Shown: in pieces, positions 4,361 through 63,016 of the stretch
Layout: every line of letters begins with the position of its first letter
Numbering within the stretch: the first letter of the stretch is position 1
Program-made: the position numbers and the translations under genes
The notes under the pieces: model-generated
What the model was told of the DNA's origin: nothing
The model's database searches: none
What the model saw: only the letters and a program-made list of their open reading frames with translations
Origin: Hoylesella buccalis ATCC 35310
Lineage (GTDB): Bacteria; Bacteroidota; Bacteroidia; Bacteroidales; Bacteroidaceae
Direction of reading: 5' to 3'
Assembly (NCBI RefSeq): GCF_025151385.1
Contig: NZ_CP102287.1
Location: forward strand, 1,426,001 to 1,490,000
Length of the DNA stretch: 64,000 nucleotides

Positions 4361-4448
4361 CCAAAGTCATGGAGATTGGGCGGCAAAGTCATTGAGTTTG
4401 GAGGTCAAAGTCATTGAGATTGGAGGGTAAAGTCATTGAGATTGGAAA
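4361..4448. repeat. 22-bp x 4 dyad array, locus A
   Basis: Four consecutive units of exactly 22 bp begin at 4361, 4383, 4405 and 4427. Three carry the core AAAGTCATTGAG; the first has AAAGTCATGGAG. Each is left half-site CAAAGTCA (one TAAAGTCA) joined to TGAGATTG or TGAGTTTG. The fourth ends TTGGAAA. The array occupies the middle of the 468-bp gene-free stretch 4224-4691, between divergent genes. The rest of that stretch is AT-rich and shows only the promoter at 4300. Confidence 0.85.
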
Positions 4449-4691
4449 CAGAGAAAAATGTGCCGTAAAATTAAAAAAAACAATTAAAAAAGTTTGGGAT
4501 AAACTTAAAATTTCATTATCTTTGAAAGTAATAATCACTTTATCTAGGAAAATTCAGTTAACTTCCCTACTTAGACAATAAGATTGTCCACCAAGGCTCT
4601 ATGTAAAATTGAAAAAAGCCGTGATGAATGTGCAAAGCAAACATATACCAAGCTAATGTGGGAATGAAGAAAGATTTGAAACTTTCAGAGC

Positions 4692-5063
4692 ATGATGACT
4701 AAATACACATTTATAGTAATAACACTAATTTCATTTCTTTTTGCTGGTTGTACAAAAGATGATGACTTTGATGTAACTTACAAATTCATCAAAAAAGATA
4801 CCATAACCGTATTATCACATAAAGAATACTATTTCTATCCAGGTACTTCCATCCAGTCAACGAATAAAGGATACGTTATAGTAAAAAGAAACATGGAAAA
4901 GGAAATTATCCCTACCATCATAGGATTTGATAGCATCTATGAAGAGGGGTATGAATACCTCATTACTGTTAAGATATCAAGACCCAAGCAAACAATGCCA
5001 GATTTATATGGTGATAGATACGAATATGTTAGGTTAGTAAGTAAAAAGAAAATTACGAACTAA
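4692..5063 (+). CDS. Hypothetical lipoprotein
   Basis: Protein of 123 residues with a lipoprotein signal peptide: MMTKYTFIVITLISFLFAGC, Cys at about 20, followed by acidic KDDDFD, typical of a lipoprotein sent to the outer membrane in this phylum. No domain is recognised in the mature part. The gene is clearly more AT-rich than most of the window and stands alone between array A and the SRP RNA, which hints at recent acquisition. Two start codons in tandem (4692 and 4695) are equally possible. Confidence 0.6.
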   Translation: MMTKYTFIVITLISFLFAGCTKDDDFDVTYKFIKKDTITVLSHKEYYFYPGTSIQSTNKGYVIVKRNMEKEIIPTIIGFDSIYEEGYEYLITVKISRPKQTMPDLYGDRYEYVRLVSKKKITN

Positions 5064-5075
5064 CCAACTAAATAT

Positions 5076-5153
5076 AGAACGATCATCAGCCGAGCCGCAC
5101 AAGTCTTCTCTTGGCAGAAATATGGCAAGCATTATGGAGTTGAAATCTACTAA
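5076..5153 (+). pseudogene. Possible 3' remnant of a glycosyltransferase gene
   Basis: One frame reads ISRAAQVFSWQKYGKHYGVE then IY and a stop at 5151. This resembles the extreme C-terminus of GT4-type glycosyltransferases (Arg-Ala-x-x-Phe-Ser-Trp-x-Lys-Tyr). No upstream start or donor domain remains. It is only about 25 codons, so chance similarity is possible. Confidence 0.25.
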
Positions 5154-5198
5154 AAAGTATTTTTTTGCACATTTCTTGTGTCAATCAATTCTTTTTCT

Positions 5199-5206
5199 TA
5201 CCTTTG
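5199..5206 (+). promoter_or_regulatory. Promoter for SRP RNA / tRNA-Thr
   Basis: TACCTTTG with TTG at 5176-5178, spacer 20 bp, a textbook Bacteroidetes promoter. The start would be near 5212, ten bases before the SRP RNA. Confidence 0.75.
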
Positions 5207-5221
5207 CAACCGCTAAGAAAC

Positions 5222-5317
5222 GGGCAAGTCTTTTACGGCCAGCTCCCTTTGAATCCCCCAGGGTGGGAACGCAGCAAGGGTATTAGGTTGTAGCGGCGCG
5301 ATAAGAGTAGCTTGCCC
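5222..5317 (+). ncRNA. ffs: Signal recognition particle RNA (bacterial small type)
   Basis: The ends GGGCAAG (5222-5228) and CTTGCCC (5311-5317) pair perfectly. The apical region CCCCCAGGGTGGGAACGCAG followed by CAAGGGTA is the conserved SRP loop that binds Ffh. About 96 nt, the length usual for this phylum. It is transcribed just ahead of tRNA-Thr, with only four bases between them. Confidence 0.9.
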
Positions 5318-5321
5318 ACCC

Positions 5322-5395
5322 GCCTCTTTAGCTCAGTTGGCCAGAGCACGTGATTTGTAATCTCGGGGTCGTTGGTTCGAATCCGACAAGAGGCT
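5322..5395 (+). tRNA. tRNA-Thr (TGT)
   Basis: Acceptor arms GCCTCTT (5322-5328) and AAGAGGC (5388-5394) pair; D-arm GCTCAGTTGGCCAGAGC; anticodon TGT at 5356-5358; T-arm GTTGGTTCGAATCCGAC. CCA is not encoded. The anticodon stem has one T-T mismatch. Confidence 0.95.
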
Positions 5396-5415
5396 CACTT
5401 ATTTCAGAAATCAAC

Positions 5416-5449
5416 GAGGGTGTATCAGAATAATGATACCCCCTCTTTT
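5416..5449 (+). terminator. Terminator after SRP RNA / tRNA-Thr
   Basis: GAGGGTGTATCA and TGATACCCCCTC pair (one mismatch in 12) around GAATAA, followed by TTTT. Confidence 0.75.
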
Positions 5450-5553
5450 GTTTTGTGGCAGATGATGCTGACGCCAGCAAAAAATGTGACCACGAATGCT
5501 TGGTTTACTTGATAAAGGTAAGCGCGCAATGGCAATCTTTCATTCCTTTTTAT

Positions 5554-5561
5554 TATATTTG
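5554..5561 (+). promoter_or_regulatory. Promoter for the DNPH1-like gene
   Basis: TATATTTG matches TAnnTTTG, 25 bp ahead of the ATG at 5587, and excludes an earlier in-frame GTG at 5455. Confidence 0.6.
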
Positions 5562-5586
5562 CACAGGCGACCTATATCAATCAAAC

Positions 5587-6042: not shown

Positions 6043-6173
6043 ACCCTGCGAACGACAATGCTCGCACTTTTGCCGGCTACCGTGGCATAGATATTGGAAA
6101 TTTTTAACGTCAACGCCGTGGAACCATCTATAAAATCTCTCATGTACGTACAATATATATGAGATAAAATGCG

Positions 6174-6181: not shown

Positions 6182-6189
6182 CAGATAGA

Positions 6190-6723
6190 ATGATAAACGT
6201 ACCCTCACTGATTCAGCTTAAGGCGTTCGCCCGCATTGACGGACTTTGGCTGGCACTGTTATGGACAGCCAGTTTCATGAGTATGATGTACATACCCAAG
6301 AGTGCATTGGGAGGCCTGCTGATGCTGGCCACGCCCCCTTTCATGCTATGGCGATTCATCAAGTTTCGCAACTATGCACTCGATGGTGTCATATCCTTTG
6401 CGCGAGGATTGACATACGGTTGCTACTGCATCTTCTACGCTTCCCTGCTCTTTGCTTTGGTTCAAACGGCGTATTTCCAGTTCTTGGACGGCGGACATTT
6501 CGTTCAGATTATGCATCAAGCCCTACAGACCATGGAGGGCGTATATCAGCAAAACGGCGTTGACGTCAAGCAAGCCATGGAGACAGTTGACCTCATGGGC
6601 ACGCTGAAACCCATTGAACTGGCCTTTGTCTTCATGACGCAAAACCTCTTGCTTGGCGCCCTTCTGAGTGTCATCGTGGCCGCCATTGGCATGAAACGAG
6701 TGAAAAATCATACAAGAATATAA
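6190..6723 (+). CDS. DUF4199 family membrane protein
   Basis: About 177 residues with four hydrophobic segments: roughly 20-40 (GLWLALLWTASFMSMMY), 43-58, 72-97 and the C-terminal FMTQNLLLGALLSVIVAAIG. The order and length match DUF4199 inner-membrane proteins of Bacteroidetes, whose function is unknown. It leads a conserved group with the GT2 glycosyltransferase. The ATG at 6190 is chosen over one at 6169 because the latter lies upstream of the promoter. Confidence 0.75.
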   Translation: MINVPSLIQLKAFARIDGLWLALLWTASFMSMMYIPKSALGGLLMLATPPFMLWRFIKFRNYALDGVISFARGLTYGCYCIFYASLLFALVQTAYFQFLDGGHFVQIMHQALQTMEGVYQQNGVDVKQAMETVDLMGTLKPIELAFVFMTQNLLLGALLSVIVAAIGMKRVKNHTRI

Positions 6724-6909: not shown

Positions 6910-6918
6910 CAGAATACT

Positions 6919-10909: not shown

Positions 10910-13822
10910 ATGAACCTGAAAAGAACATCTCTCCTATGCTGGGCTTTGTTGCTGTTATTCACACAAGCCTTACCACAGACAGCACGCCACAAGAAAGAGC
11001 GCACCGTAAGCATCCTCGGTCGTGTGGTCGACTCTTTCACCCATCTCTGCGTGCTTGACGCCAAGATTACCATCATGACTTCCGACAGCGTGATGGTGGA
11101 CACCTGCCGAACCGTCACATGGAATAAAGAGGCCATACACCCCGATGCCTACTTCTATCTACGAAAGAAGCTGAGCGAAGACACCTACATCTTCAAGATA
11201 GAGCACCCCGATTACCAAACTACCTACATCAACCACGAACTACTTTTCAAAGGTAGACAGAGCAGCATAGCCCTGGATGACATGCCCATCCAGCGCAAAC
11301 GCATGGAAGACAAAGAGCATACGCTGGACGAAGTGGTGGTGAAAAGCACCAAAATCAAGATGGTGATGAAAGGTGACACCTTGGTCTTCAACGCCGAAGC
11401 CTTTAACCTTCCACAGGGAAGTATGCTCGACGCGCTGATTAGGCAGCTGCCGGGAGCCACGCTCAACAGCCACGGAGAGATTTTCATCAATGGCCGAAAG
11501 CTGGATTATCTGACGCTCAACGGAAAAGATTTCTTCAAGAAAGACAATAAAACACTGATAGAAAACCTGCCCAGCTACACCGTGAAAGACTTGCAGGTGT
11601 TTGAGAAAAGCACCGAGAAGAGCAAAGCCTTGGGCGTGGATGTGGAGAAGAAAGACTACGTTATGGACATCCAACTGAAGAAAGAGTATGAGAAAAACTT
11701 CATCGCCAACGCCGACATAGCCGGAGGTACCAACAGCCGATACGCCACAAAGCTATTCGGTCTGTATTTCAACCCACGACTACAGATGTCTGTCTTCGCC
11801 AACCTCAACAACGTGAACGAAGACCGCAAGCCCGGAGAGAAAGGCGACTGGGACCCAACTAAGATGCCCAATGGACAGGTAACGCAGAAGACAGTGGGAC
11901 TGAACCTTGCAACCAGCAACGATAAAAACACGATTACGGACAACGTGTCGACCAGTGTTTCCTGGCAAAACAGCCACAATGTGAGCCAAACAGCCTCCGA
12001 ATCGTTCCTCAACACAGGCAACAACAGCTATTCAAGAAGCGTGTCAGACAGTAGATCGAAAGATTTCGAGACCCAGCTCCAACACCAATTTCAGATGAGT
12101 AAACCCTTCTGGCTACGTGTTGAGAACGCCCTCACATACCGCAAAAGTGACAACTGGAGCAACCTACGTGCTGGCTCCTTCAAACAAGACCCGGCACCCT
12201 GGGGCGACACTCAAGCCGTTCTTGACACCTTGTTCACCACGCCATGGAGCCGTCGAGTGCAAGACGCAGCCCTCAACAGACAGCGAAATCAAAGCTTTGG
12301 AGAAGGTCATTCGTTCCAGACATCCAATCGCCTATATGGTTCCTACCCATTGAAGTCGGGAGACGACATCTTCTTCCAAGGTTATTTCAGCTATGACAAC
12401 ACCAAACGAACGGCATTCGAACAATATCGATTAGAATATCTCCAGAGTGCGACAGCCAAAGATCAACGCGACAGATACGATGACACGCCCTCGCACAGCT
12501 ACGAGTATAACGCATTCGTGGGCTATACATACCAACTTCCAAGTGGCTGGACTTTCTTTCCGGGATTGGCCTTCACCCAACAAATGAAATACACCAACAA
12601 CTCAAAATACCGACTGGATCAGCTGCAAGAGTGGCAACAGCAAGCACACGAATTGGGAACCCTGCCCTCGTCACGCGACGCTCTGAGGCGAGCATTGGAC
12701 TCCAACAACAGTTATCAAGGATATTTGAAGACACAGACACAGGAATTGTCTTTAACCGTCGACTACCGTAAACAAAGTGGCAAGAACTCATTCTTTATGG
12801 GTCTCAACATCCCCGTTCAACACAAAAAGCAACGTTTAGACTACAGGAGTACTGCTCTCAACACCAACATCAGTCAACAGACATGGAAGACATCATATAA
12901 TCTGAACATGAGTGGCACCTATAATCAATACAGCATCTGGGCTTATGGCCAAATGAGAATCGACATGCCTGACCTGTATTCGAAAATCGACAGGCGCGAC
13001 GACTCCAACCCCTTGGCGATCTCGTTGGGCAACCCAAATCTCAAAAACATCACGACCTACTTTGCCATGATTCACATTGCAGACCAACACAACAGACGAT
13101 TCAAGTGGCCAACCTTGGATTTTACGCTTAATGTGCAACAAAACGCCGTGGCCAACGGCTTCACCTTCAACCCTACAACGGGCGTTTACACCTACAAACC
13201 GCAGAATGTGAAAGGCAACTGGGATGGCACGGCAGACATCTATTACAACTGCCCGTTAGACAGTGCCAAATACTTCACACTGGACAATAAATTGGAATAC
13301 CGTTACAGTCGCAACGTAGACCTCACGGCTGTGGAGGGACATACCGAGAGCGTACTGAGCAAGGTGAACAACCACTGGACGCGAAACGAACTCTCGCTGA
13401 ACTACCAAAAAGAAGATGCCACCTGCAGTTTGGTAGGCTCTTTGGGCTGGCGCAACGTCAATAGTAGGCGGGAAAACTTCCACACCATCAACGCTTACGA
13501 TTTCAACTACGGCATCGTGGGCTCTTATCATTTCGGCTTCGGACTGGAAACAGGCATGGATCTGAAGATGTTCAGCCGCAGAGGATACGACGACCCGTCG
13601 TTCAACACCGATGATTGGGTGTGCAACGCCTACCTCAGTCAGTCGTTCTGCAAGGGGAAGTTAAGCGCCAAACTCGAAGCCTACGACCTTTTCCAACAAC
13701 TTAAGAGCGTGTCGTACAACGTCAACGGACAAGGCAAGACCGAGACACGCTTCAACACCATTCCCCATTACGTCATGCTGCACCTGATGTACAAGCTGAA
13801 CATCAGCGGAAAGAAAAAATAA
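10910..13822 (+). CDS. TonB-dependent receptor-like outer-membrane beta-barrel protein
   Basis: 970 residues. A signal peptide (LLCWALLLLFTQALPQ) is followed by a carboxypeptidase regulatory-like beta sandwich (ILGRVVDSFTHLCVLDAKIT), a short TonB-box-like HTLDEVVVKSTKIK, a plug-like part (GSMLDALIRQLPGATLNSHG, INGRKLDYLTLNGKDFF) and a long barrel ending MYKLNISGKKK. This is the outer-membrane beta-barrel family related to TonB receptors without a clear SusC signature and without a SusD partner nearby. The substrate is unknown. The gene stands alone; array B follows. Confidence 0.82.
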   Translation: MNLKRTSLLCWALLLLFTQALPQTARHKKERTVSILGRVVDSFTHLCVLDAKITIMTSDSVMVDTCRTVTWNKEAIHPDAYFYLRKKLSEDTYIFKIEHPDYQTTYINHELLFKGRQSSIALDDMPIQRKRMEDKEHTLDEVVVKSTKIKMVMKGDTLVFNAEAFNLPQGSMLDALIRQLPGATLNSHGEIFINGRKLDYLTLNGKDFFKKDNKTLIENLPSYTVKDLQVFEKSTEKSKALGVDVEKKDYVMDIQLKKEYEKNFIANADIAGGTNSRYATKLFGLYFNPRLQMSVFANLNNVNEDRKPGEKGDWDPTKMPNGQVTQKTVGLNLATSNDKNTITDNVSTSVSWQNSHNVSQTASESFLNTGNNSYSRSVSDSRSKDFETQLQHQFQMSKPFWLRVENALTYRKSDNWSNLRAGSFKQDPAPWGDTQAVLDTLFTTPWSRRVQDAALNRQRNQSFGEGHSFQTSNRLYGSYPLKSGDDIFFQGYFSYDNTKRTAFEQYRLEYLQSATAKDQRDRYDDTPSHSYEYNAFVGYTYQLPSGWTFFPGLAFTQQMKYTNNSKYRLDQLQEWQQQAHELGTLPSSRDALRRALDSNNSYQGYLKTQTQELSLTVDYRKQSGKNSFFMGLNIPVQHKKQRLDYRSTALNTNISQQTWKTSYNLNMSGTYNQYSIWAYGQMRIDMPDLYSKIDRRDDSNPLAISLGNPNLKNITTYFAMIHIADQHNRRFKWPTLDFTLNVQQNAVANGFTFNPTTGVYTYKPQNVKGNWDGTADIYYNCPLDSAKYFTLDNKLEYRYSRNVDLTAVEGHTESVLSKVNNHWTRNELSLNYQKEDATCSLVGSLGWRNVNSRRENFHTINAYDFNYGIVGSYHFGFGLETGMDLKMFSRRGYDDPSFNTDDWVCNAYLSQSFCKGKLSAKLEAYDLFQQLKSVSYNVNGQGKTETRFNTIPHYVMLHLMYKLNISGKKK

Positions 13823-13920: not shown

Positions 13921-14008
13921 CCAATCTCATTGACTTTGACCACCAAACTCATTGACTTTGACCTCCAATCTCAATGAGTTTGGGCATCAATCTCAATGAG
14001 ATTGGAAA
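13921..14008. repeat. 22-bp x 4 dyad array, locus B (fold-back form)
   Basis: Units start at 13921, 13943, 13965 and 13987. Unit 1 (CCAATCTCATTGA) is complementary to unit 4 (TCAATGAGATTGG) and unit 2 (CCAAACTCATTGA) to unit 3 (TCAATGAGTTTGG), 13 bp each without mismatch, so the array can fold as two nested stems. The fourth unit ends TTGGAAA. It fills the middle of the 312-bp gap 13823-14134, which also holds the promoter at 14099 and nothing else recognised. Confidence 0.88.
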
Positions 14009-25748: not shown

Positions 25749-25836
25749 CCAATAGCATTGAGTTTGGCATTCAAAGTCATTGGGTTTGGCAGCTAAAAGC
25801 ATTGAGTTTGGCAGCTAAAAGCATGGAGATTGAAAT
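25749..25836. repeat. 22-bp x 4 dyad array, locus C
   Basis: Units start at 25749, 25771, 25793 and 25815; cores AGCATTGAG, GTCATTGGG, AGCATTGAG and AGCATGGAG, each followed by TTTGG or ATTGA. Left half-sites CAATAGCA, CAAAGTCA and TAAAAGCA (twice). The last unit ends ATTGAAAT. It lies in the 512-bp divergent gap 25446-25957; the remainder of that gap shows only the reverse promoter at 25522. Confidence 0.82.
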
Positions 25837-33465: not shown

Positions 33466-33551
33466 TGTAAATTAGCATCAAACAGGTTATTTCATGTGCC
33501 TTATTTGACACGTTTTATCCTCTTTGCATTCAAAAGCAAAGCTTTTAACAT

Positions 33552-33639
33552 GCAAACTCAATGACTTTATCGTACAAAAGCATAGCAATAAGAGGGCAAA
33601 AGATAGCTTATTACACGCTCAAAAAGGCACAAAAGCAGT
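33552..33639. repeat. 22-bp x 4 dyad array, locus D (degenerate)
   Basis: Units near 33552, 33574, 33596 and 33618. The first (CAAACTCAATGACTTTA) is good, the next two (ACAAAAGCATAGCAATA, GCAAAAGATAGCTTATT) are worn, and the fourth is barely recognisable. Placed by the 22-bp phase. Confidence 0.55.
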
Positions 33640-33689
33640 GCTTTTACCAAGAAAACAGATGAGATTCTGGTGAGCAAAGAGCCTATATT

Positions 33690-33873: not shown

Positions 33874-34107
33874 TTAATGGTTACACACTTTTGACGTATC
33901 AACGGTAAAACCATCTGAATGCGCAGGCTTAAACTTGCCGCGCTGCTCGAGAAAGTCGACCAACTGCGCCGCTGTCATTCCTTCTGCCGAACAAGTATAA
34001 AAGCGTTCGACTTCTCCGAAACGACTGATAATTGCTTTTACTAATTCTTCTTTGCTTGAATAGCTGTTTCCCTGCATCATTTGCAGGACTTCATGTCCAT
34101 GTATCAT
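33874..34107 (-). CDS. YecH family metal-binding protein (DUF2492)
   Basis: 77 residues. MIHGHEVLQMMQGNSYSSKE at the start, RFYTCSAEGMTAAQLVDFLE in the middle and SKVCNH at the end carry the His and Cys residues conserved in this family. Small cytoplasmic protein, probably metal-binding; function unknown. It is the last gene of the reverse strand before porQ, separated from the DKNYY gene by a run of short repeats. Confidence 0.85.
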   Translation of the reverse strand: MIHGHEVLQMMQGNSYSSKEELVKAIISRFGEVERFYTCSAEGMTAAQLVDFLEQRGKFKPAHSDGFTVDTSKVCNH

Positions 34108-34213
34108 TTGTGAGTTTTTGAGTTTATAAGTTTATAAGTTGGTGAGTTTGTGAGATTATATGTTTATGAGTTTGGTGAGTTTATAAGTTCGTAAGCTGAT
34201 AAGTTTGGTGAGT
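34108..34213. repeat. Degenerate simple repeat (GAGTTTATAAGTTT type)
   Basis: About a dozen variants of GAGTTTATAAGTT / GGTGAGTTT follow each other between the DKNYY and YecH genes. Low-complexity, probably variable in length between strains. Confidence 0.6.
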
Positions 34214-34861
34214 TTAGTCAGCGATTTTCTGCCCTTGATAATAGGTGTTGAAAGTATCTTCGGCATAGCCATCGCCCACAACTTGAAAGGAACTAGCACT
34301 GGCACCGTTAACTTTACGGCCCATGAAATAAACGTCAAAAGAATCTTTCGCATAACCATCGCCTAAATACCGAAACGAATTACCGCTGGCACCAGACAGC
34401 TTGCGTCCCATATAGAACACGTTGAAAGTATCTTTTCCGTAATATCCACCCAGGTCTTGAAAGCTTCGCGCCGAGGCTCCTTCTACGTTCTTGCCATTGA
34501 ACAGCACGGCATGCGACATAATCATATACCCCCGTGTACGATACATAAAACCCTCATCACCATCGTACGGACGATGGTAGTCATCACGTTTTAACCTGAA
34601 TGTACGAGGATCAACATACCGCAACACATCGCCAAGATAGTAAACATGATAAGCATCTTTAGCATAACCATGCCCCAAATTGACAAAAGAATATACATCG
34701 GCCATGGATAAAGGCGTGCCGCAATAAAGCACCACACCTCCTGCTACTTGGTAATCGGCAGGACGACGCTGCGCCTTTACTTGGACAGTGAGCGTAACAA
34801 ACAGCGCAAGGGCCAAGAGGCGAAAGGCCGAACTAAATGAAATCGATTTGCTCATCTTCAT
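34214..34861 (-). CDS. DKNYY family repeat protein
   Basis: 215 residues, signal peptide (LLALALFVTLTVQVKAQ), then about five repeats of roughly 33 residues with a Tyr-x-Lys-Asp-x-(Phe/Tyr)-x-Val-Tyr-(Phe/Tyr)-x-Gly core (YYGKDTFNVFYMGRKLSGAS, YAKDSFDVYFMGRKVNGASA). This is the DKNYY pattern, found in exported beta-rich proteins of unknown role. The ORF ends just before the simple repeat at 34108-34213. Confidence 0.8.
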   Translation of the reverse strand: MKMSKSISFSSAFRLLALALFVTLTVQVKAQRRPADYQVAGGVVLYCGTPLSMADVYSFVNLGHGYAKDAYHVYYLGDVLRYVDPRTFRLKRDDYHRPYDGDEGFMYRTRGYMIMSHAVLFNGKNVEGASARSFQDLGGYYGKDTFNVFYMGRKLSGASGNSFRYLGDGYAKDSFDVYFMGRKVNGASASSFQVVGDGYAEDTFNTYYQGQKIAD

Positions 34862-36344: not shown

Positions 36345-36810
36345 TATTTAGTTGACAAGTTGACAAGTTAACAAGTTGACAAGCTGTTAGACCTTTTATT
36401 GATTTGGCCAATAACGAAACTATGTACTCGTCTGCTTATCATTTTAGTTAACGAGTTAACAAGTTGACAAGCTGTTAGACCTTTTATTGATTTGGCCAAT
36501 AACGAAACTATGTACTCGTCTGCTTATCATTTTAGTTAACGAGTTAACAAGTTGACAAGCTGTTAGACCTTTTATTGACTTGCCCAATAACGAAACTATG
36601 TACTCGTCTGCTTATCATTTTAGTTAACGAGTTAACAAGTTGACAAGCTGTTAGACCTTTTATTGATTTGGCCAATAACGAAACTATTTATTCGTGAGCT
36701 TGTCATTTTGTTGACGAGTTAACAAGCTGTTAGACCTTTTGTTAACGCGCCAGATAACGAAACTATTAACTCGTCAACTTGTGAACTCGTCAACTCGTCA
36801 ACTCTCAAAA
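36345..36810. repeat. 88-bp tandem repeat (about 4.5 copies) with flanking short repeats
   Basis: The marker CTGTTAGACCTTTT recurs at 36384, 36472, 36560, 36648 and 36727: three steps of 88 bp, then a shortened copy (79 bp). Copies 1-3 are nearly identical. The left edge is a run of the 8-mer GTTGACAA (36351-36382) and the right edge AACTCGTC repeats, which are the complement of GACGAGTT in the unit, so the edges can pair. It fills the gap between rluA and fabG. Confidence 0.85.
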
Positions 36811-37614: not shown

Positions 37615-38214
37615 CTACTCTTTTTTAGGACTCAACTTGCCCAAAGCACCGTAAACCACCTTGGCAACCAGTGGCTTGCTACTCTCTTCTGTCAGTCCAT
37701 GTCCCAAGCGTCCGTAGATGAATGGCACCTCAAGTCCTTTGATGCAATAATGCGTGATGTCGGCCACCAATTGAACGTTCTCGATGTCGAACTCTCCATC
37801 CTCCTTCCCTTCCGAATATACGCGACGGAAGAGTTCAATCTCATCTTCATCAAAATTCTTCCTCATCTTCTCCACCATCCAGATGTTACGGAAGAACTCT
37901 GCGCGCAAGTTGCCATTGCGCACCACCGTTTCGCGTATCATACTGAGATGGGTATAAATGAGTTCGATGATCTTATCTTGTGGCGCAATCTTCTTGTTGG
38001 CCACCTCATCCAACTTGTCACTGAGGCGTTCGAGTTCAGACTCGATGACTGCATAGAACACAGCCTCCTTGGAACTAAAATAGGTGTACAGCGTGCGTCT
38101 CCCCTTACCAGAGGCCAACGCAATGTCATTCATGGTGGTATTGGCCACGCCATTCTTGGCAAACAATTGCCTCGCCACGTCCACCAATAACCGTCTTGTT
38201 TTTGATATTGACAT
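37615..38214 (-). CDS. TetR/AcrR family transcriptional regulator
   Basis: 199 residues. N-terminal helix-turn-helix (ARQLFAKNGVANTTMNDIAL ASGKGRRTLYTYFSSKEA) followed by a helical ligand domain. It lies upstream of fabG, 48 bp apart on the same strand, and probably regulates lipid metabolism, though its ligand is unknown. Promoter at 38264. Confidence 0.88.
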   Translation of the reverse strand: MSISKTRRLLVDVARQLFAKNGVANTTMNDIALASGKGRRTLYTYFSSKEAVFYAVIESELERLSDKLDEVANKKIAPQDKIIELIYTHLSMIRETVVRNGNLRAEFFRNIWMVEKMRKNFDEDEIELFRRVYSEGKEDGEFDIENVQLVADITHYCIKGLEVPFIYGRLGHGLTEESSKPLVAKVVYGALGKLSPKKE

Positions 38215-38412: not shown

Positions 38413-38500
38413 CCAATGTCAATGACATTGGCATCCAAACTCATTGACTTTGACGTCCAATTGCATTGACTTTGGCGTCCAAAGTCAATGCTATTGAAAA
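38413..38500. repeat. 22-bp x 4 dyad array, locus E
   Basis: Units start at 38413, 38435, 38457 and 38479. Unit 1 is a perfect 19-bp palindrome, CCAATGTCAATGACATTGG. Units 3 and 4 are complementary over 12 bp (CATTGACTTTGG / CCAAAGTCAATG). The last unit ends ATTGAAAA. It sits in the 525-bp gap 38215-38739 between tetR and the initiator tRNA; the rest is AT-rich, with only the two promoters recognised. Confidence 0.87.
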
Positions 38501-38989: not shown

Positions 38990-39982
38990 TCATGCACATA
39001 ATTTCATAAGCCTATAAAGGAAGAAAGGAATATCCGTTACTCCCCTGAACTGTGCCCTGAAGGCTTTGACTTTTGCGTTGAAGGATTCAGCATTGGCATT
39101 TGTGGCTCTGTTGACAAAGAAATTGAGTATGGTATCATAATGGTTCTTAAAGGTGTCAATTACCGTATAGAAATTATCCACGCCCAACTTCTCTACCTCG
39201 TTAAACCACTTAGCCAGTTTCAATCTTGCAGCGTCCTTGATGCTTCTGGCATTATAAATATCGGTAAGTTCCATGGCCAGGTCATAGGCTTTTTTGAGTT
39301 CCGGGTAGTTTTCAAAGATTATTTCAGCCCTTAGCCTTTGCGATTCTGTCCACTTTGACTTGTGTTTAGTCAGTATAAACTTCGCCCTGGCAAGCAGTTG
39401 CTTGCGTGTGTCACCGTTGCTGTATCTGAATGGCCTGTAGGTTTCGTTCTTGGCTTTGGCTTCCTTCATCTCCTCATTTTCTCTGTCCCTTGCCATCCAC
39501 CTGTAGGCTATGCGCATGTCGTCCAAAGCGTCATAGTAAAGCTTCTGCACATGAAACCTGTCATTGGTGATGAGTGCCTTGGGGAACACCGTGCGCGCAA
39601 TGATCATCATAGAGGAAGACAAGTCGAGCGTTATCTCCTTGACAGTCTTTCTTTTGGAAAGGTCAATCTTTTCCAGAACACGAATCACATCTTCGGCTTT
39701 TGTTCCCCTGACCACAGCTACCAGCGTACCCCTGCCACCTTTGCCAGCCTTGTTGGTCAGAAACGTATAGACCTCACCGCTGCTCAGACAAGTCTCATCG
39801 ATACTCAGGCTCTCTCCCAGGTTCTCATCAAACAGCAGCCAGTCTCCCGCATGCGACAACTGCTCCCACTGGCGATAATCGCTGAAATGCTCCTTGTATT
39901 GGGTGGAAAGCTGCTTGCCGTCTACGCCATAGTGAGAGCCGATACCTGTAATGCTCTCCGCAGTAGACTCAATTCTATTCTT
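38990..39982 (-). CDS. ISL3-family transposase (ISAon1-like), orfB
   Basis: DDE-type transposase domain. LSIDETCLSSGEVYTFLTNK contains the first Asp; later ITNDRFHVQKLYYDALDDMR (second Asp) and ATNANAESFNAKVKAFRAQF (catalytic Glu). The frame is open from 39982, after an in-frame TAA at 39985, and reads KNRIESTAESITGIGSHYGV. It has no ATG at the front; the first plausible separate start is TTG at 39859. It is offset +1 relative to orfA, so a fusion by frameshift is likely. The stop lies inside the left inverted repeat. Confidence 0.88.
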   Translation of the reverse strand, partial: KNRIESTAESITGIGSHYGVDGKQLSTQYKEHFSDYRQWEQLSHAGDWLLFDENLGESLSIDETCLSSGEVYTFLTNKAGKGGRGTLVAVVRGTKAEDVIRVLEKIDLSKRKTVKEITLDLSSSMMIIARTVFPKALITNDRFHVQKLYYDALDDMRIAYRWMARDRENEEMKEAKAKNETYRPFRYSNGDTRKQLLARAKFILTKHKSKWTESQRLRAEIIFENYPELKKAYDLAMELTDIYNARSIKDAARLKLAKWFNEVEKLGVDNFYTVIDTFKNHYDTILNFFVNRATNANAESFNAKVKAFRAQFRGVTDIPFFLYRLMKLCA

Positions 39983-48320: not shown

Positions 48321-50015
48321 ATGAAACGATTCTCACTATCCATCATATTGGCAACGCTCTCTCTTCTTGTATCCGCCCAATCTACCACCCCTTTGCTGCA
48401 AAACGCCCTATGCTCCTCGCCCAAACGCGAGGTGAGAGCCGTGTGGCTGACTACCATCGGCGGACTGGATTGGCCTAAAACCTACGCACACACCGCGTAC
48501 ACAAAGGAAAAACAGCAGGAAGAATTGCGAAAACTGCTCGACCTATACCAGCGTGCCGGCATCAACACTATCTTGCTACAAACCCGCATCAGGGGGACGA
48601 TGATTTACCCATCCACCCACGAACCATGGGACGGCTGCCTGTCGGGCGTGCCGGGAAGAAGTCCGGGGTACGACGCTTTGGCATTTGCCATTGACGAATG
48701 CCACCGCCGCGGCATGGAGTTGCACGCCTGGGTAGTCACCATACCGCTGGGAAAATGGAACGGGTTGGGCTGCAAAACCATGAGGAGAAAGCTGCCGGCA
48801 CTGGTCAGAAGGATTGGCGCCGATGGCTATATGAACCCCGAAAAGCCTCAAACTGCTGATTATCTGGCCACCATTTGCGAAGAAATAACCCGCAACTACG
48901 ACATCGACGGCATTCATCTCGACTACATTCGCTATCCCGAAAACTGGCCCCTTCGCATCAACAGAACGGAAGGCCGCCGCAACATCACCCGCATCGTGGA
49001 AGCCATTCACGCCAAAGTGAAGCGGCTCAAGCCCTGGGTGAAGATGAGTTGTTCGCCCATTGGCAAGTACGATGATCTGCCCAGATATACCAGTCGGGGA
49101 TGGAACGCCTACACCAAGGTGTGCCAAGATGCGCAAGGATGGCTCAAAACGGGACTGATGGATCAGCTCTACCCCATGCTGTATTTCAAAGATAACAACT
49201 TCTTTCCCTTCGCCATCAACTGGAAAGAAGAGAGCTGCGGCAAGATGATTGTTCCCGGACTGGGCATCTATTTCATGTCGCCCAATGAGCGTAACTGGCC
49301 CATCGATGTCATCAAACAAGAGCTGAACGTTGTCAGACAATATGGTATGGGGCACGCATACTTCAGAGGAAAGTTCCTGACAGACAACACCAAGGGCATC
49401 TACGACTTCACAGAGAACGATTTTACCCGCTATCCGGCACTCGTGCCAGCCATGACTTGGCAACATAGTACGCCGCCAATGCCGCCATCCCACCTCCGTC
49501 TGGACAGCACCAAAGCCACGTTGAGTTGGACGGGAGCGAAAGATCGCAGTGACGCTCCCTACCTGGTGTACAACGTTTATGCCAGTCGGCAGGCGCCCGT
49601 TGACATTCATGACGCGCGCAACATCGTGGCCGCACGCATCCCCTCAACCTCCACCCGCGTGCCTACCGCGCAAGGTATGGCGTACGCCGTGACGGCCATG
49701 GATCGCTATGGCAACGAGAGCGAACCGCTACAAACGCACCAAAAGCCCATCAAGACCACCCACTTTCCACCGGCAACGCTGTTGCCCTGTGACGGAAAGC
49801 GCCTGCAACTGCCCGACAAGGGACAAACACTGGATGCCCTTTTCGTGCTTATCGAATCGCTGCAAGGCACCATGGTCACCACCCGTGTATACCAAGGAAA
49901 GTATGCCGACGTGTCAAATCTGCCCGAGGGGATGTATGTGCTGCGGTCTATCAACAGGAAAGGCTATCGGCATCGCCTCGGCCATTTCATGGTGAAGCGG
50001 AATCCGAATTTATAG
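48321..50015 (+). CDS. Family 10-like glycosyl hydrolase (GHL10, DUF187)
   Basis: 564 residues. Signal peptide (LSIILATLSLLVSAQ), then the GHL10 TIM barrel: REVRAVWLTTIGGLDWPKTY, AGINTILLQTRIRGTMIYPS, ELHAWVVTIPLGKWNGLGCK, YDIDGIHLDYIRYPENWPLR (catalytic Asp region) and VKMSCSPIGKYDDLPRYTSR. C-terminal ~170 residues are beta sandwiches (fibronectin-like, ending RLGHFMVKRNPNL). Probably a secreted or surface glycan hydrolase; substrate unknown. It has no polysaccharide-use genes around it. Confidence 0.88.
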   Translation: MKRFSLSIILATLSLLVSAQSTTPLLQNALCSSPKREVRAVWLTTIGGLDWPKTYAHTAYTKEKQQEELRKLLDLYQRAGINTILLQTRIRGTMIYPSTHEPWDGCLSGVPGRSPGYDALAFAIDECHRRGMELHAWVVTIPLGKWNGLGCKTMRRKLPALVRRIGADGYMNPEKPQTADYLATICEEITRNYDIDGIHLDYIRYPENWPLRINRTEGRRNITRIVEAIHAKVKRLKPWVKMSCSPIGKYDDLPRYTSRGWNAYTKVCQDAQGWLKTGLMDQLYPMLYFKDNNFFPFAINWKEESCGKMIVPGLGIYFMSPNERNWPIDVIKQELNVVRQYGMGHAYFRGKFLTDNTKGIYDFTENDFTRYPALVPAMTWQHSTPPMPPSHLRLDSTKATLSWTGAKDRSDAPYLVYNVYASRQAPVDIHDARNIVAARIPSTSTRVPTAQGMAYAVTAMDRYGNESEPLQTHQKPIKTTHFPPATLLPCDGKRLQLPDKGQTLDALFVLIESLQGTMVTTRVYQGKYADVSNLPEGMYVLRSINRKGYRHRLGHFMVKRNPNL

Positions 50016-50068: not shown

Positions 50069-50156
50069 GCAATCTCCATGACTTTACCTTGTAAAAGCAT
50101 AGCTATTGAAGGCCAATGTCATTGACATTGCACGCCAAAGTCAATGAGATTGAAAA
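50069..50156. repeat. 22-bp x 4 dyad array, locus F
   Basis: Units start at 50069, 50091, 50113 and 50135. Unit 3 contains the perfect palindrome CAATGTCATTGACATTG. Unit 1 is complementary to unit 4 with two mismatches in 16. The last unit ends GATTGAAAA. It lies between the convergent ends of the GHL10 and vsr genes. Confidence 0.85.
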
Positions 50157-52910: not shown

Positions 52911-52990
52911 TCAAAGATAGTGCAAGCCGAAGACAAAGGAAACTTGTTTACTTTGTTGAGGCGAAGCCTATCTTATGCAAAGATAAACAT
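52911..52990. repeat. Short interspersed repeat with internal hairpin
   Basis: CAAAGATAGTGCAAGCC at the left and GGCGAAGCCTATCTTATG at the right are loosely complementary. Inside, CAAAGGAAAC-TT-GTTTACTTTG (52934-52955) forms a stem with one mismatch. I have the impression of similar sequences elsewhere in this group, but no second copy was noticed in the window. Confidence 0.5.
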
Positions 52991-59264: not shown

Positions 59265-62200
59265 TTAGTTGAACGTATACTTGATACCCACCGACATGTA
59301 CCAGCACTGGCCGATAGAATAGCTCGGTGTGAACGTTTCTGTGTTGCCATTGATGGATTTTGGCGTAGAGAACTTAGCCACACCGTCTGTGTCAACACCC
59401 TCGTATTTGAGGATACGGGCATCCGAACCGATGGCTGGATTCAAGTATTTGGCCACACCCCACTTTGAGTCAAAGAGGTTGAGCAGGTTCTTAATGTCGA
59501 AGCTCAGCTGCAAACCATGCTTTGTCTTCCCTACGTTGAGTTTGAAATCGTGCTTGTAAGCGAAGTCAATGCGATGCACCCAAGGAGAGTAAAGCGCATA
59601 AGCCTCGGCATATTCTCCTTGATGTTTGCTCAGATAACCATTTGCATGCACATAGTCCATGAAACGAGTTTTGTCGTCTTCCGATACGAAACGGAATTGC
59701 TTGTCGGCCACTTGCTGATCGGTAGGAATGTAGATGGCGTCATAATTGTATCCGTCACCGTTCATATCATTGGTGGTCATGAACGAGTAGTTGGCTCCAC
59801 CTCTCCATCCTTCATAGAACAAACTATAGTGATTACCGCTCTTGTCGTGGATGGTAGCCGATGCCACCAATCGGTCGGGCGTGTTGTATTGCGAGTTGTG
59901 CAACTTGATGTGGTTCGGTCCCTCCACAGTTGGAACGTAGGTGAATGCCGACTCTGCGTTAGAACCTGGCATGCCCGTCACACTCTTAGCCACGTTGTGC
60001 GTATAGGCAGCCATCAAGCTAACCCAATCTGCCGGTTGTACATTGGCGGTTAAGTTAGCCGTCCAACCATAGCCGCGACTGGTATTCTCCAAGACAAAAG
60101 CCTTGGTGTTTGTACGGAATCCCGTAGGATAAATAGGACGGTTGTCCACACCATTCAATCGAGCGAACCCGCCTACAGAAGGAATACTCCAATCTGAGAT
60201 GGAGGTTTCGTTAAGCGTCTTGTTGTAAATAAACTCACCCGACAAGGTGAATGGGAACGATACTGGTACTTGATAATCGATAGCCACGGATGCTTTCCAT
60301 ACCTGTGGCAACTTAAAGTTTTCTGACACGGCAGCGATAGCAGATGGAACTGTTCCGTCCTCGGGTTTGATAGTAGAAGGATAGCCCAAAGAAATCAGTT
60401 TGTCATAGAGCGCTTTCTGCGTGGCCTTGCCATTGGCATCGGTCACCAGTCCGCCTGCAAAGGTATCCATGTCGAAGCCTCGTTTGGCAGCGTTGGCAGC
60501 GTTAATTTGTGCCTGATACTGCACCATACCACCGTTGGTAGGCATGTTGGTGAAGAACACCAGTGGCAAGTTACCGGCAAAGAGGCCCGTACCGCCACGC
60601 ACCTTGAGCGACTTGTCACCCAAGACATCCCAGGTAAATCCTACACGGGGTGAGAATATCCAGTTGGCTGAAGGCCACTTGCCCGTATCAATGCGGCGCC
60701 CATCGTAATCAAGGTCATAGATAGCCTTGTTGGTGATCAGGTCGCTGTTGACGAATGAGAGATTGTCAATGCGCAGACCATAAACCAACTTGAAGTTGTC
60801 CATCACCGACCATTCATCCTGTCCGTAAACAGAAATCTTGTTGCTGCGTACACGAGCGGCCGGCGCACTCTCGCCATCGTAGCCGTAAGTGAGGTTCACA
60901 ATCTCGGGAGCGGCACCATTGATGAAATCGTCCAAACTGCTATAGCGATAGTAGCCTGTACCATTACGCATGTAGGCATTGTCCGCCATCTTGTATTCGT
61001 AGGCCAGTCCACCGGTGATTTTATGCTTTCCTGCATAGTAAGTCAGCTCGTCCTTCACGTTCCAAACATCGTTATGAACGGCATTGTTCCATGTAAACAG
61101 CTCGTAACCCAACGACAGGTAAGCCTGTCCGCCTTTCAAGATATCGATGAAGGGGAATTCCGATGAATTAGAACTACGCAAGTCGTCCAACTTTGAATAG
61201 GTTGCCAACAACTGGTTAGAAAGATTCTCTGTCAAGCGACTGTTCAAGTCGAACGAGAACGAGTGTACCAGGTTGTCCATCGAATACATGGTATTAGCAT
61301 ACGCCATGGAAGCCTGTGACAGACGGCCTTCCGACATACGTGTGCCGCCATCCATAGACGATGCGTTAGGCGAGCGCCAGGTCATGTTCTTGGTGTAGTT
61401 GTAACGCAGAGCCAAACGGTGCTGGTCTGTGATATTCCAGTCTAAGCGTGCCAACAGCTTGGTATTGCTGATGTCAGCGGGGAAGCTGGTGTACGAACCG
61501 GTGTTGTATCCATATTTCTGGTTCACAAAGTCAGAAACGGTCTGCAAATCCTTGGCTGTTGTACGTGAAATATACTCTTGAACGTTGGCCACACCGTCCT
61601 CAGAGGCTCTCCAACGGTTAGCCACCGTAGGAACCTTTTCAGTTTCACCGTTCACGAAGAAGAACAACTTATTCTTGATAATCGGGCCACCCAACGTAAA
61701 ACCGTAGGTAGTCTTGCGATCTTTCTCGCGCGCACCGGGTATTTGGAATCCTTCGACAGCATCGCCACGCATGTTCTCATTTCTGTGATAAACGTACGCA
61801 CTGCCCTTGAAAGTATTGGTACCCGACTTGGTAATGGCATTCACACCACCACCGATGAAGTTGGTTTGGCGCACATCGTAGGGGGCAATCACCACCTGCA
61901 ACTCTTCAATAGCTTCGATGGAGATGGGGTTGCCACCACCGGGAAGAGCCGATGACAAACCAAAGTTGTTGTTGAAGTTGGCACCATCCACGGTGAAGTT
62001 GGCCGTACGACCATCCGTTCCGACAAAGCTCATGCCATTGCCTCCATAAGGAGAAAGACGCGTGATGTCGGTGATGCTGCGGCTCACCGTAGGCAGATTC
62101 ATCATCTGCGAATTGTTGATGTTGGTCGAAGCTCCAGTCTTCTCTTGCGCGAACTTGGAAGCCGTTGCACTGACAACGACCTCGCCCAGCATGGCGGCAT

Positions 62201-62534
62201 CTTCCGAAAGGGTCACGCCAAGGTTATACACCTCACCCAACTGAAGCGTGATATCCTTGTAAGTCTTCGTCTGGTGTCCCACATAGCTCACCGTAACGGC
62301 ATAAGGACCACCTGTACGCATACCCTGAATGTTAAAACGTCCGTTCACGTTGGTCACTGCCGAATAGGTAGTTCCAGAAGGCTCGTGTACCGCCTGTACG
62401 GTCGCACCAATGAGTTCTTCGCCGGTTCCCTCAAGGGTAACCTTACCACTCATTGCGGAAGTTGTAACCTGTGCCATCATTGATGTGCACAAACACATCA
62501 TCATGGACATCAGAAAAACAATTTTTTTCTGCAT
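59265..62534 (-). CDS. TonB-dependent receptor, Oar-like
   Basis: 1089 residues. Signal peptide (MQKKIVFLMSMMMCLCTSMM), a carboxypeptidase regulatory-like domain (MSGKVTLEGTGEELIGATVQ), plug domain (GEVVVSATASKFAQEKTGAS, IEAIEELQVVIAPYDVRQTN) and a long barrel ending SIGQCWYMSVGIKYTFN with a terminal aromatic residue. The FIGGGVNAITKSGTNTFKG stretch and length fit the Oar-like group. Substrate unknown. It and the lipoprotein form an operon; promoter at 62594. Confidence 0.9.
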   Translation of the reverse strand: MQKKIVFLMSMMMCLCTSMMAQVTTSAMSGKVTLEGTGEELIGATVQAVHEPSGTTYSAVTNVNGRFNIQGMRTGGPYAVTVSYVGHQTKTYKDITLQLGEVYNLGVTLSEDAAMLGEVVVSATASKFAQEKTGASTNINNSQMMNLPTVSRSITDITRLSPYGGNGMSFVGTDGRTANFTVDGANFNNNFGLSSALPGGGNPISIEAIEELQVVIAPYDVRQTNFIGGGVNAITKSGTNTFKGSAYVYHRNENMRGDAVEGFQIPGAREKDRKTTYGFTLGGPIIKNKLFFFVNGETEKVPTVANRWRASEDGVANVQEYISRTTAKDLQTVSDFVNQKYGYNTGSYTSFPADISNTKLLARLDWNITDQHRLALRYNYTKNMTWRSPNASSMDGGTRMSEGRLSQASMAYANTMYSMDNLVHSFSFDLNSRLTENLSNQLLATYSKLDDLRSSNSSEFPFIDILKGGQAYLSLGYELFTWNNAVHNDVWNVKDELTYYAGKHKITGGLAYEYKMADNAYMRNGTGYYRYSSLDDFINGAAPEIVNLTYGYDGESAPAARVRSNKISVYGQDEWSVMDNFKLVYGLRIDNLSFVNSDLITNKAIYDLDYDGRRIDTGKWPSANWIFSPRVGFTWDVLGDKSLKVRGGTGLFAGNLPLVFFTNMPTNGGMVQYQAQINAANAAKRGFDMDTFAGGLVTDANGKATQKALYDKLISLGYPSTIKPEDGTVPSAIAAVSENFKLPQVWKASVAIDYQVPVSFPFTLSGEFIYNKTLNETSISDWSIPSVGGFARLNGVDNRPIYPTGFRTNTKAFVLENTSRGYGWTANLTANVQPADWVSLMAAYTHNVAKSVTGMPGSNAESAFTYVPTVEGPNHIKLHNSQYNTPDRLVASATIHDKSGNHYSLFYEGWRGGANYSFMTTNDMNGDGYNYDAIYIPTDQQVADKQFRFVSEDDKTRFMDYVHANGYLSKHQGEYAEAYALYSPWVHRIDFAYKHDFKLNVGKTKHGLQLSFDIKNLLNLFDSKWGVAKYLNPAIGSDARILKYEGVDTDGVAKFSTPKSINGNTETFTPSYSIGQCWYMSVGIKYTFN

Positions 62535-62593
62535 TTTTGTGTTAATTTTTAATTAAAAAAGAGGCATGAAAACCTGTTATACTTATTTCACTG

Positions 62594-62601
62594 CAAAATT
62601 A
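62594..62601 (-). promoter_or_regulatory. Promoter for the Oar-like receptor
   Basis: Reverse-strand TAATTTTG, 59 bp before the ATG at 62534. Confidence 0.55.
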
Positions 62602-62928
62602 ACTAAATATTTTCATATAATCGTTACATATTGGTTACAATTTGGTTATGCATCTATCCGCAGGGGAAATTTTTACCAGTAGAGGCGAAATTTATCACGC
62701 CCGTAGAGCCATCCGCGTGTCGGAATGTGCTCAATCACACCCCTACGTATTTCGGAACGTGATGACGAGTGGATGAACCCAGCGAATAATCAGGCCTTAC
62801 GAATGTAAAATGTTTTGCCTGAAAAACACCCCAAAAACAGGGTTTCAAAACTTGCAAAATAGAAAAAATCAATAGGCTTGCAGGATGCAAAATAGGAGAT
62901 TGGCAGGGTGGAAAAAACGTATTTTTGA

Positions 62929-63016
62929 GTAAAAACATAGCGTTGGCCGCCCTATATGCATCCTTTTGGTGGCCAATCTGCATGCCATTGACCCACAAAG
63001 GCATACAGATTGACGT
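62929..63016. repeat. 22-bp x 4 dyad array, locus G (divergent sequence)
   Basis: Units in 22-bp phase at 62929, 62951, 62973 and 62995: TAAAAACATAGCGTTGG, TATATGCATCCTTTTGG, CAATCTGCATGCCATTG and CAAAGGCATACAGATTG. The central CAT and right-hand TTG are kept. The sequence is further from the consensus than loci A-C, E and F, so the call rests on phase. Confidence 0.55.

What the first reader, a model, noticed from the sequence alone, without database searches (positions are those of the whole stretch)
4361..63016. A family of seven intergenic elements, each four 22-bp dyad units (88 bp)
At 4361, 13921, 25749, 33552, 38413, 50069 and 62929 there are four tandem units in exact 22-bp phase. Each unit reads as two 8-bp half-sites meeting at a central base (for example CAAAGTCA-T-TGACTTTG), plus a 5-bp spacer. 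Half-sites recur in different pairings: CAAAGTCA, CAATCTCA, CAAACTCA, CAATGTCA, CAATAGCA, TAAAAGCA. They look like CAA-NN-(T/G)CA with a variable dinucleotide, mixed as a combinatorial set. 22 bp is about two helical turns, so four dyads would face the same side. All seven are outside genes, spaced 5-13 kb apart. I know no named element with this layout; a nucleoid-binding or chromosome-organising site is one idea.
Basis: partly seen in the sequence, partly recalled or inferred. Interest (0 to 1): 0.8.

Follow-up and report, generated by a model that had tools for sequence, protein, structure and literature searches.

The report
Four-site tandem DNA arrays in Prevotella
Scattered between the genes of this Prevotella-group bacterium are dozens of short DNA arrays, usually exactly four paired sites in strict 22-base steps, which evolution preserves like docking sites for an as yet unidentified DNA-binding protein.

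Summary
Five of the seven listed arrays are clean four-dyad, 22-bp-phase arrays; 33552 and 62929 are degraded. They belong to a genome-wide family of at least 83 arrays (78 with three or more units); 65 of 83 have exactly four units, and all 83 lie outside called genes, favouring gene 3' ends and convergent gaps. In a sister genome, 24 of 24 full arrays examined match the place of an array here; three half-site positions (A2, A3, C7) changed in 2 of 546 comparisons, the other five in 110 of 910. Other Prevotella species have the same 17+5-bp geometry with their own half-site core; two period scans (1.36 Mb) found such chains at 22 bp and at no other step from 18 to 27. Hairpins are disfavoured: arrays fold less stably than unit-swapped controls, though most single arrays fold better than shuffles. 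No RAYT transposase in this genome. Lrp, HU, a TetR neighbour and ParB were tested as readers; none fits. Best reading: selected docking platforms for a multi-dimer DNA-binding protein with an architectural or insulating role and lineage-specific recognition. Reader and function are inferred. Four literature searches aimed at the arrays found no description.

The parts
4362..4444 (+). array 1, four 17-bp dyads at 22-bp steps
   Evidence: array-model match 87.3 bits; the array is one of five the model was built from; orthologous array in the sister genome, one flank matched
13922..14004 (+). array 2, four dyads, 99 bp after the stop of the gene ending at 13822
   Evidence: orthologous array in G046; irregular six-unit copy in G029
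25750..25832 (+). array 3, four dyads, in a divergent gap
   Evidence: orthologous array in G046
33531..33646 (+). degraded array: dyads at 33531 and 33553 in phase, weak units near 33575, another dyad at 33630 out of the main phase
   Evidence: (E 4.8e-7)
38414..38496 (+). array 4, four dyads, upstream of a TetR-family gene (37615-38214, minus strand)
   Evidence: orthologous array in G046; no array seen in G029, where the alignment across the gap is poor
50070..50152 (+). array 5, four dyads, 54 bp after the stop of the gene ending at 50015
   Evidence: orthologous four-unit array in Hoylesella buccalis ATCC 35310 and Prevotella sp. BV3P1
62974..63036 (+). degraded array, two scoring dyads (62974, 62996) plus weak ones
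   Evidence: (E 7.4e-5)

Best explanation
Each array is a double-stranded docking platform for a sequence-specific DNA-binding protein that binds as several dimers side by side, one dimer per 17-bp dyad. The dimers lie two helical turns apart on one face or around a protein core, most often four dimers in the window's species. The bound complex would sit at gene 3' ends as an architectural anchor and/or an insulator that stops read-through, away from promoters. Shown: phase, unit number, location, selection on defined positions, lineage-specific core, folding weaker than a unit-swapped control. Inferred: that a protein binds, that it is multi-dimeric, and what it does.
For: Rigid 22-bp phase with AA/TT enriched at an 11-bp period in arrays (0.81 against 0.31; 3.1 in G039). 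Unit number 4 in 65 of 83, in 23 of 24 full arrays of G046 (profile scan; 19 of 24 by a looser frame scan) and in 16 of 16 in G039, although the scored unit number differs between G000 and G046 in 6 of 24 orthologous pairs. Substitutions between orthologous arrays: A2, A3 and C7 changed in 2 of 546, the other five half-site positions in 110 of 910, flanks in 464 of 2601. 24 of 24 full arrays of G046 examined match the place of a G000 array. 83 of 83 outside called genes; convergent gaps 31 of 83 against 37 of 184 intergenic gaps (P 0.004); divergent 12 of 83 against 51 of 184 (P 0.02); in tandem gaps 32 of 40 are nearer the 3' end. 7-16 kb spacing: 12 gaps against 4.9 expected, 0 of 5000 draws. 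Same geometry with other half-sites in other species. Arrays fold less stably than unit-swapped controls in G000 and in G039.
Against: No binder found. Lrp/AsnC proteins and a conserved TetR neighbour keep nearly the same recognition region across species with different half-sites. HU and HU-HIG genes are present with or without detected arrays. One main ParB per genome and no clear Noc-like paralogue. A relative at 68-78% nucleotide identity (G029) has a degraded array at one place, none seen at another, and R1 matches at one place only in its genome, so the system seems dispensable on that time scale. In G124, and partly in G027, arrays are near-identical dispersed copies with shared flanks, as a mobile repeat would be. 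Array positions are not demonstrably conserved at about 69% protein identity (6 of 15 against 10 of 36, P 0.5). The spacing test used two blocks partly chosen for being array-rich and counted four degraded arrays. Taken singly, 7 of 8 arrays folded as RNA are more stable than their shuffles (z -2.9 to -11.2). G005 has three units in 6 of 6 scored arrays and one array with a one-base phase slip. Curvature predicted by a wedge model is not above background in G000.
Confidence: 0.52

Rival explanations
1. The arrays are a non-autonomous dispersed repeat (MITE- or BrickBuilt-like) spread by transposition or gene conversion, with little or no host function; tandem structure and phase are inherited from a founder.
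For: In G124, 10 of 12 aligned copies share flanks outside the array, with TGTAAA on the left and TTTACA on the right. Three of four G027 arrays share the start of a right flank. Positions are not clearly shared between distant species. Units within an array resemble each other in direct orientation more than expected (z 3.9 to 7.8).
Against: In the window's genome no flanking k-mer stands out strongly (best 9-mer in 8 of 83 arrays, 1.2 expected). 24 of 24 examined G046 arrays match a G000 array's place, and A2, A3 and C7 are frozen while neighbouring positions drift. Unit number stays near four despite slippage. Positions favour 3' ends. No Y1/RAYT transposase in G000.
Confidence: 0.22
2. The bound array works mainly as a transcription roadblock or insulator at gene ends rather than as a nucleoid anchor.
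For: Enriched in convergent gaps, nearer the 3' end in 32 of 40 tandem gaps, rare in divergent gaps.
Against: Some 80 arrays for over a thousand gaps (184 gaps of 100 bp or more in 464 kb), and the 7-16 kb spacing is not explained by read-through control.
Confidence: 0.13
3. The arrays act as RNA or single-stranded DNA hairpins (terminators, mRNA 3' ends, REP-like elements).
For: Taken singly, 7 of 8 arrays tested fold better than their shuffles, for example 13921 (z -11.2) and 38413 (z -7.0). G039 arrays show array-level mirror order of units, 10 of 10 mixed arrays.
Against: Dyads fold somewhat by construction, so the fairer control swaps units between arrays: over 65 arrays the mean folding energy is weaker than with swapped units (-25.4 against -28.0, sd 0.6); the same in G039 (-32.8 against -38.3, sd 1.1); inverted complementarity between units is below the null for all six unit pairs (z -2.0 to -5.9). 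Perfect palindromic dyads number 10 where 31.6 are expected. Window array 25749 does not fold significantly (z -1.25). No Rfam family matches the arrays at gathering score.
Confidence: 0.06
4. The arrays are operators of one large transcriptional regulon.
For: Tandem dyads are typical of cooperative operators (recalled); an array lies upstream of a TetR-family gene in 5 of 19 genomes that have the gene, with different half-sites.
Against: 31 of 83 arrays lie between convergent genes with no start nearby, and divergent gaps are depleted.
Confidence: 0.07

Closest known systems
REP / BIME elements with RAYT transposases
   Same: Dispersed, extragenic, palindrome-like units in regular groups, said to bind proteins such as gyrase and IHF (PMC2817692, abstract and passages); sequence differs between lineages (recalled).
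   Different: Palindromy of units is avoided rather than kept, phase is a rigid 22 bp with mostly four units, and no Y1/RAYT gene was found in the window's complete genome.
BrickBuilt minisatellite-MITE of Porphyromonas gingivalis
   Same: Same order of bacteria; intergenic; tandem units of similar length (23 nt); dispersed copies (PMC4596501, passages).
   Different: BrickBuilt has 1 to 22.8 repeats, a 23-nt consensus (AGAYCATARTATCCTCTCRTRTG) without this dyad frame, leader and tail with IS5-type terminal inverted repeats, and predicted long stem loops. Here unit number is near four, the period is 22 bp, and no shared flank was found in the window's genome.
Nucleoid-occlusion and macrodomain site families (Noc NBS, SlmA SBS, MatP matS)
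   Same: Many specific sites scattered over a chromosome and bound by an architectural protein (starts of Noc and SlmA abstracts in the listing; matS recalled).
   Different: Those are mostly single palindromes (recalled); here several dyads in fixed phase. One main ParB and no clear Noc-like paralogue. Reader unknown.
Lrp/AsnC octamer sites
   Same: A four-dimer ring that can wrap DNA over phased dyads would explain four units (recalled model).
   Different: Recognition helices are nearly constant within each paralogue group across species with different half-sites (30 proteins aligned), and G005 has arrays but no PF13404 match in an 86%-complete draft.
Plasmid iterons
   Same: Tandem repeats of about 22 bp bound by a replication protein (recalled).
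   Different: About 80 chromosomal copies, and dyads rather than direct sites; linkage to replication genes was not tested.

Membership tests
REP/BIME | extragenic dispersed palindromic units in regular groups | tested here: met
   83 of 83 outside called genes, regular phase
REP/BIME | units kept as hairpin-forming palindromes | tested here: not met
   perfect palindromes avoided, 10 against 31.6; folding weaker than unit-swapped null; single arrays do fold better than shuffles in 7 of 8 cases
REP/BIME | RAYT/Y1 transposase partner gene in the genome | tested here: not met
   PF01797: no match in G000 and in 9 others of 16 genomes searched, among them G046, G039, G005, G012 and G124; 6 of 16 have one
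MITE / BrickBuilt | terminal inverted repeats and shared leader/tail around the array | tested here: not met
   no strongly enriched flank k-mer in 83 G000 arrays; shared flanks do occur in G124 (10 of 12) and G027
MITE / BrickBuilt | target-site duplication, empty sites | tested here: inconclusive
   24 of 24 examined G046 arrays have a G000 counterpart; G029 shows no array at one place but the alignment across that gap is poor; duplications were not searched for systematically
Noc/SlmA-type site family | many specific protein-binding sites over the chromosome | tested here: inconclusive
   number and selection fit; binding itself not testable here
Noc/SlmA-type site family | dedicated reader (ParB paralogue or specific TetR) | tested here: inconclusive
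   one main HTH_ParB protein per genome in 16 of 16 (G006 has an extra weak match; G208's match is split over two frames); the one TetR family tested has the same SGKGRRTLYTYF stretch in 19 of 19 genomes; other TetR genes not surveyed
Lrp/AsnC wrapped sites | reader specificity changes with the half-site | tested here: not met
   recognition helix nearly constant within each paralogue group in 30 aligned proteins; the second paralogue of G000 was not among them
HU/IHF sites | reader presence follows array presence | tested here: not met
   PF00216 and PF18291 matches in 12 of 12 genomes, including G003 and G024 where no array was detected
Curated RNA families (Rfam) | covariance-model match | tested here: not met
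   at gathering score only SRP RNA and four tRNAs in the window

The most novel reading that the evidence does not exclude
Prevotella-group chromosomes carry an undescribed chromosome-wide address system. Standardised arrays, usually of four dimer sites two helical turns apart, are held in place by selection at gene ends and read by a fast-evolving architectural protein whose inner half-site code changes between species while the 17+5-bp frame does not.
Probability: 0.35. Interest if true: 0.88.

Novelty: new variant of a known kind. Interest (0 to 1): 0.72.

Why it matters
Little seems to be known about how Bacteroidota organise their nucleoid beyond HU (recalled). An element with a preferred unit number, rigid phase, positions at gene ends and half-sites that change between species while the geometry stays points to a dedicated reader and to co-evolution of site and protein. 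It is directly testable: one array as bait should identify the protein. If instead the arrays are a mobile repeat, they show how a multi-site repeat keeps its geometry across a genus while its core sequence turns over.

Tried and rejected
RNA or ssDNA hairpins: disfavoured by the unit-swap control and palindrome avoidance, although 7 of 8 arrays tested singly fold better than shuffles. REP/RAYT: no Y1 transposase in the window's genome. Lrp octamer, my first favourite: recognition helices do not follow the half-site. HU/IHF and HU-HIG: present in 12 of 12 genomes. TetR gene beside array 38413: a close homologue in 19 of 20 genomes, with the same HTH stretch in 19 of 19; arrays lie upstream of it in G000, G046, G208, G039 and G105, but none was seen in the other 14 fetched loci, some of which are cut short. 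ParB/Noc paralogue: one main ParB each. Intrinsic curvature as common property: not above background in G000 (34 against 36 degrees), high in G039 (86 degrees). Conserved placement between distant species: inconclusive. Array deserts as acquired islands: of two 20-kb desert stretches, about 15.6 kb of one and about 8 kb of the other match G046. A strict purine-polarity order of units in G000: not found, though centre base T precedes A 123 to 41. Strand polarity against transcription or replication direction: no clear pattern, except that 6 of 9 divergent-gap arrays have the same extreme polarity, which I could not explain. Literature: four searches aimed at the arrays gave no description of them; four more were aimed at comparison elements.
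Full report
What is there. The window is bases 1,426,001-1,490,000 of a single-contig genome of 3,307,707 bases. The nearest named relative met is Hoylesella buccalis ATCC 35310 (97% amino-acid identity for one window protein; the tool notes that the window's own record may be left out). At 4361, 13921, 25749, 38413 and 50069 there are four 17-bp dyads, each two 8-bp half-sites around a central base (A or T in nearly all), with 5-bp spacers, in exact 22-bp phase. Perfect consensus dyads number 17 in the window and 0 in each of five shuffles. The two other listed places are weaker: 33531-33646 holds two in-phase scoring dyads plus outliers, 62974-63036 holds two.

Genome-wide family. A sequence-only profile of the five arrays (R1) finds 175 matches on both strands at E up to 10 in the window's genome. 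That search scored 150 of 1215 first-look candidates, so it is a lower bound. From fetched stretches (26% of the chromosome, centred on the matches) I catalogued 83 arrays, defined by two neighbouring dyads with a summed score of at least 20: 65 with four units, 7 with five, 2 with six, 4 with three and 5 with two. Two of them lie 154 bp apart and may be one. The best dyad pair in 40 shuffles of two contiguous blocks (464 kb, 20 shuffles each) scores 12.1. In or near these arrays the distance between neighbouring strong dyads is 22 bp in 193 cases, 44 in 15, 66 in 1, 77 in 1 and 110 in 2, with none at 21 or 23. Eighteen isolated dyads above 14 bits exist in the two blocks against 2.5 in shuffles; five of them are one identical 17-mer or its complement.

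Half-sites. From 308 units the half-site is C/T-A-A-A/T-N-T/G-C-A, with positions 2, 3 and 7 almost invariant (614, 616 and 601 of 616). The two half-sites of one dyad avoid being the same: 10 perfect palindromes against 31.6 expected (0 of 2000 shuffles as low), and at position 5 the halves prefer to be one C and one G, 134 against 101. Units of one array share their strand polarity (variance 22.5 against 7.8, sd 1.3) and resemble each other directly (z 3.9 to 7.8). AA/TT steps peak at an 11-bp period (0.81 against 0.31 in other intergenic DNA).

Selection. I fetched 20 stretches around its best R1 matches; they hold 24 full arrays, and 24 of 24 have at least one flank matching the DNA beside a G000 array (both flanks in 19, one flank in 5; identity of the best matches mostly 89-96%, lowest 80%). 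A 25th, two-unit match (L156:6012) was left out. Aligning the 24 pairs, half-site positions 2, 3 and 7 differ in 1, 0 and 1 of 182 comparisons each; positions 1, 4, 5, 6 and 8 in 24, 18, 30, 21 and 17 of 182; the centre in 4 of 91; spacers in 66 of 340; flanks in 464 of 2601. The flank figure includes some misalignment. The contrast of 2 of 546 with 110 of 910 inside the same half-sites does not depend on flanks (P 3e-21). The scored unit number differs between the two genomes in 6 of 24 pairs, with clean whole-unit gains or losses in three of them; yet 65 of 83 and 23 of 24 arrays have four units, which argues for selection on number.

Place. All 83 arrays fall outside genes called by my own hexamer-based caller. 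31 lie between convergent genes, 40 in tandem gaps and 12 in divergent gaps; 184 intergenic gaps of at least 100 bp in the two blocks are 37, 96 and 51 (Fisher P 0.004 for convergent, 0.02 for divergent). In tandem gaps 32 of 40 are nearer the 3' end of the upstream gene, median 109 bp against 249 bp to the next start. In the two blocks, which I chose partly because arrays were dense there and whose 21 arrays include four degraded ones, 12 gaps between arrays measure 7-16 kb where random intergenic placement gives 4.9 (0 of 5000 draws), and 2 are under 7 kb against 4.9 (P 0.07). There are also deserts of over 100 kb. Of two sampled 20-kb desert stretches, about 15.6 kb of one and 8 kb of the other match G046, so deserts are not simply acquired islands. 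Base skew of the fetched pieces puts the origin near 2.45 Mb and the terminus near 0.8 Mb; arrays occur in both halves.

Other species. R1 matched 13 of 100 genomes searched, the window's own among them. One of these, in another family, looks like a coding-type repeat by eye (L038). Reading those loci showed the same 17+5 geometry with other cores: CAAAAGC(TAT or ATA)GCTTTTG in G039 (16 of 16 arrays found in the fetched stretches have four units), CAAAATCAGTGATATTG in G005 (6 of 6 scored arrays have three units; a seventh stretch holds an array with a one-base phase slip), CAAAGTTATTAACTTTG and, as a second family, CAATATAGGCTATTTTG in G028, CAAAACC-type in G006. A profile of the G039 arrays matched 59 of 200 genomes of the genus, G000 and G039 included, under strict filters. 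A scan that asks only for AA...TT-framed dyads found chains of three or more units at a step of 22 bp and at no other step from 18 to 27: 8 chains in 504 kb from 10 genomes, three of which had any, and 7 chains in 80 named loci of 852,971 bases. A few of these chains look doubtful singly; the contrast with nine empty steps is the point. The geometry is therefore shared across the genus while the core is lineage-specific. In G039 the units have a direction (CTATG or CATAG), and all 10 mixed arrays have every CTATG unit before every CATAG unit, chance 4e-7. A weaker mirror tendency exists in G000, centre T before A 123 to 41 (these pairs are not independent).

What it is not. Hairpins: taken singly, 7 of 8 arrays folded as RNA are more stable than dinucleotide shuffles (z -2.9 to -11.2; 25749 is not, z -1.25), which any dyad array would tend to show. 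Swapping units between arrays makes the predicted RNA more stable, not less, in G000 (-25.4 observed, -28.0 null, sd 0.6) and in G039 (-32.8, -38.3, sd 1.1). Rfam finds none at gathering score. RAYT transposase: none in G000. A MITE in this genome: no strongly shared flank, although G124 copies do share flanks in 10 of 12, so a mobile origin or spread in some lineages is possible.

Who reads it. Four protein candidates were tested and none explains a half-site that changes between species. Lrp/AsnC: in 30 aligned proteins the recognition helix is nearly constant within each paralogue group; the second G000 paralogue was not among them. HU and HU-HIG: in 12 of 12 genomes. The TetR-family neighbour of array 38413: 19 of 20 genomes, same SGKGRRTLYTYF stretch in 19 of 19. 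ParB: one main protein per genome in 16 of 16. G029, a relative at 68-78% nucleotide identity over the longer matches of the window stretch searched, has an irregular six-unit version of array 13921, no array seen at 38413, and R1 matches at one place only (both strands of it).

Judgement. That the arrays are real, phased, mostly four-unit and under selection is shown. That they bind a multi-dimer protein follows from the pattern of constraint, the phase and the tests against hairpins, and I hold it likely. That the role is architectural or insulating is inferred from position alone. In print I found REP/BIME (PMC2817692, abstract and passages) and BrickBuilt (PMC4596501, passages) as nearest relatives, and both fail defining tests here. 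PMC5771137 was seen in passages only. Four searches aimed at the arrays gave no paper on them; the library lacks most subscription journals.

Noticed in passing
window 52912-52986: A repeat of about 74 bp with many single and tandem copies in relative G029; a similar sequence lies at L071:14055-14125 with tandem copies in G046. A separate dispersed repeat family.
   Followed up: partly
window 36350-36808: 88-bp tandem repeat (4.2 copies) and 8-bp AGTTGACA-type repeats; stretches of about 44 bp recur on many contigs of G029.
   Followed up: no
window 34107-34216: Degenerate TTTATGAG / 33-bp tandem repeat in an intergenic region near the degraded array.
   Followed up: no
G000 567364, 573188, 1545163, 1583853, 1585882: The identical dyad CAATGTCTATGCGTTTG (or its complement) occurs five times as an isolated site outside arrays; probably part of another repeat.
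   Followed up: no
G124, 12 copies in L222, L269, L270, L278-L284: Near-identical four-dyad arrays; 10 of 12 share flanks containing TGTAAA on the left and TTTACA on the right, possibly a mobile form of the element.
   Followed up: partly
G000 450974-451530 and counterparts in 10 more of the 12 genomes searched: A small HU gene (101 aa) directly followed by a long frame (475 aa) with an HU domain at its start; a conserved neighbouring pair, also in genomes without detected arrays.
   Followed up: no
G000 divergent gaps: Six of nine four-unit arrays in divergent gaps have the same extreme purine polarity on the + strand; other contexts are mixed. Unexplained, perhaps chance.
   Followed up: no
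L299 after the gene ending at 6620: In MAG SUG2085 the place of array 50069 is followed by different sequence that looks like the start of a transposase gene (by eye only).
   Followed up: no
window 38990-39859: ISL3-type transposase (PF01610) near tRNA-Met and array 38413.
   Followed up: no
G208:C80:157016-157320: The HTH_ParB match is split over two frames, perhaps a sequencing or real frameshift; left as it is.
   Followed up: no
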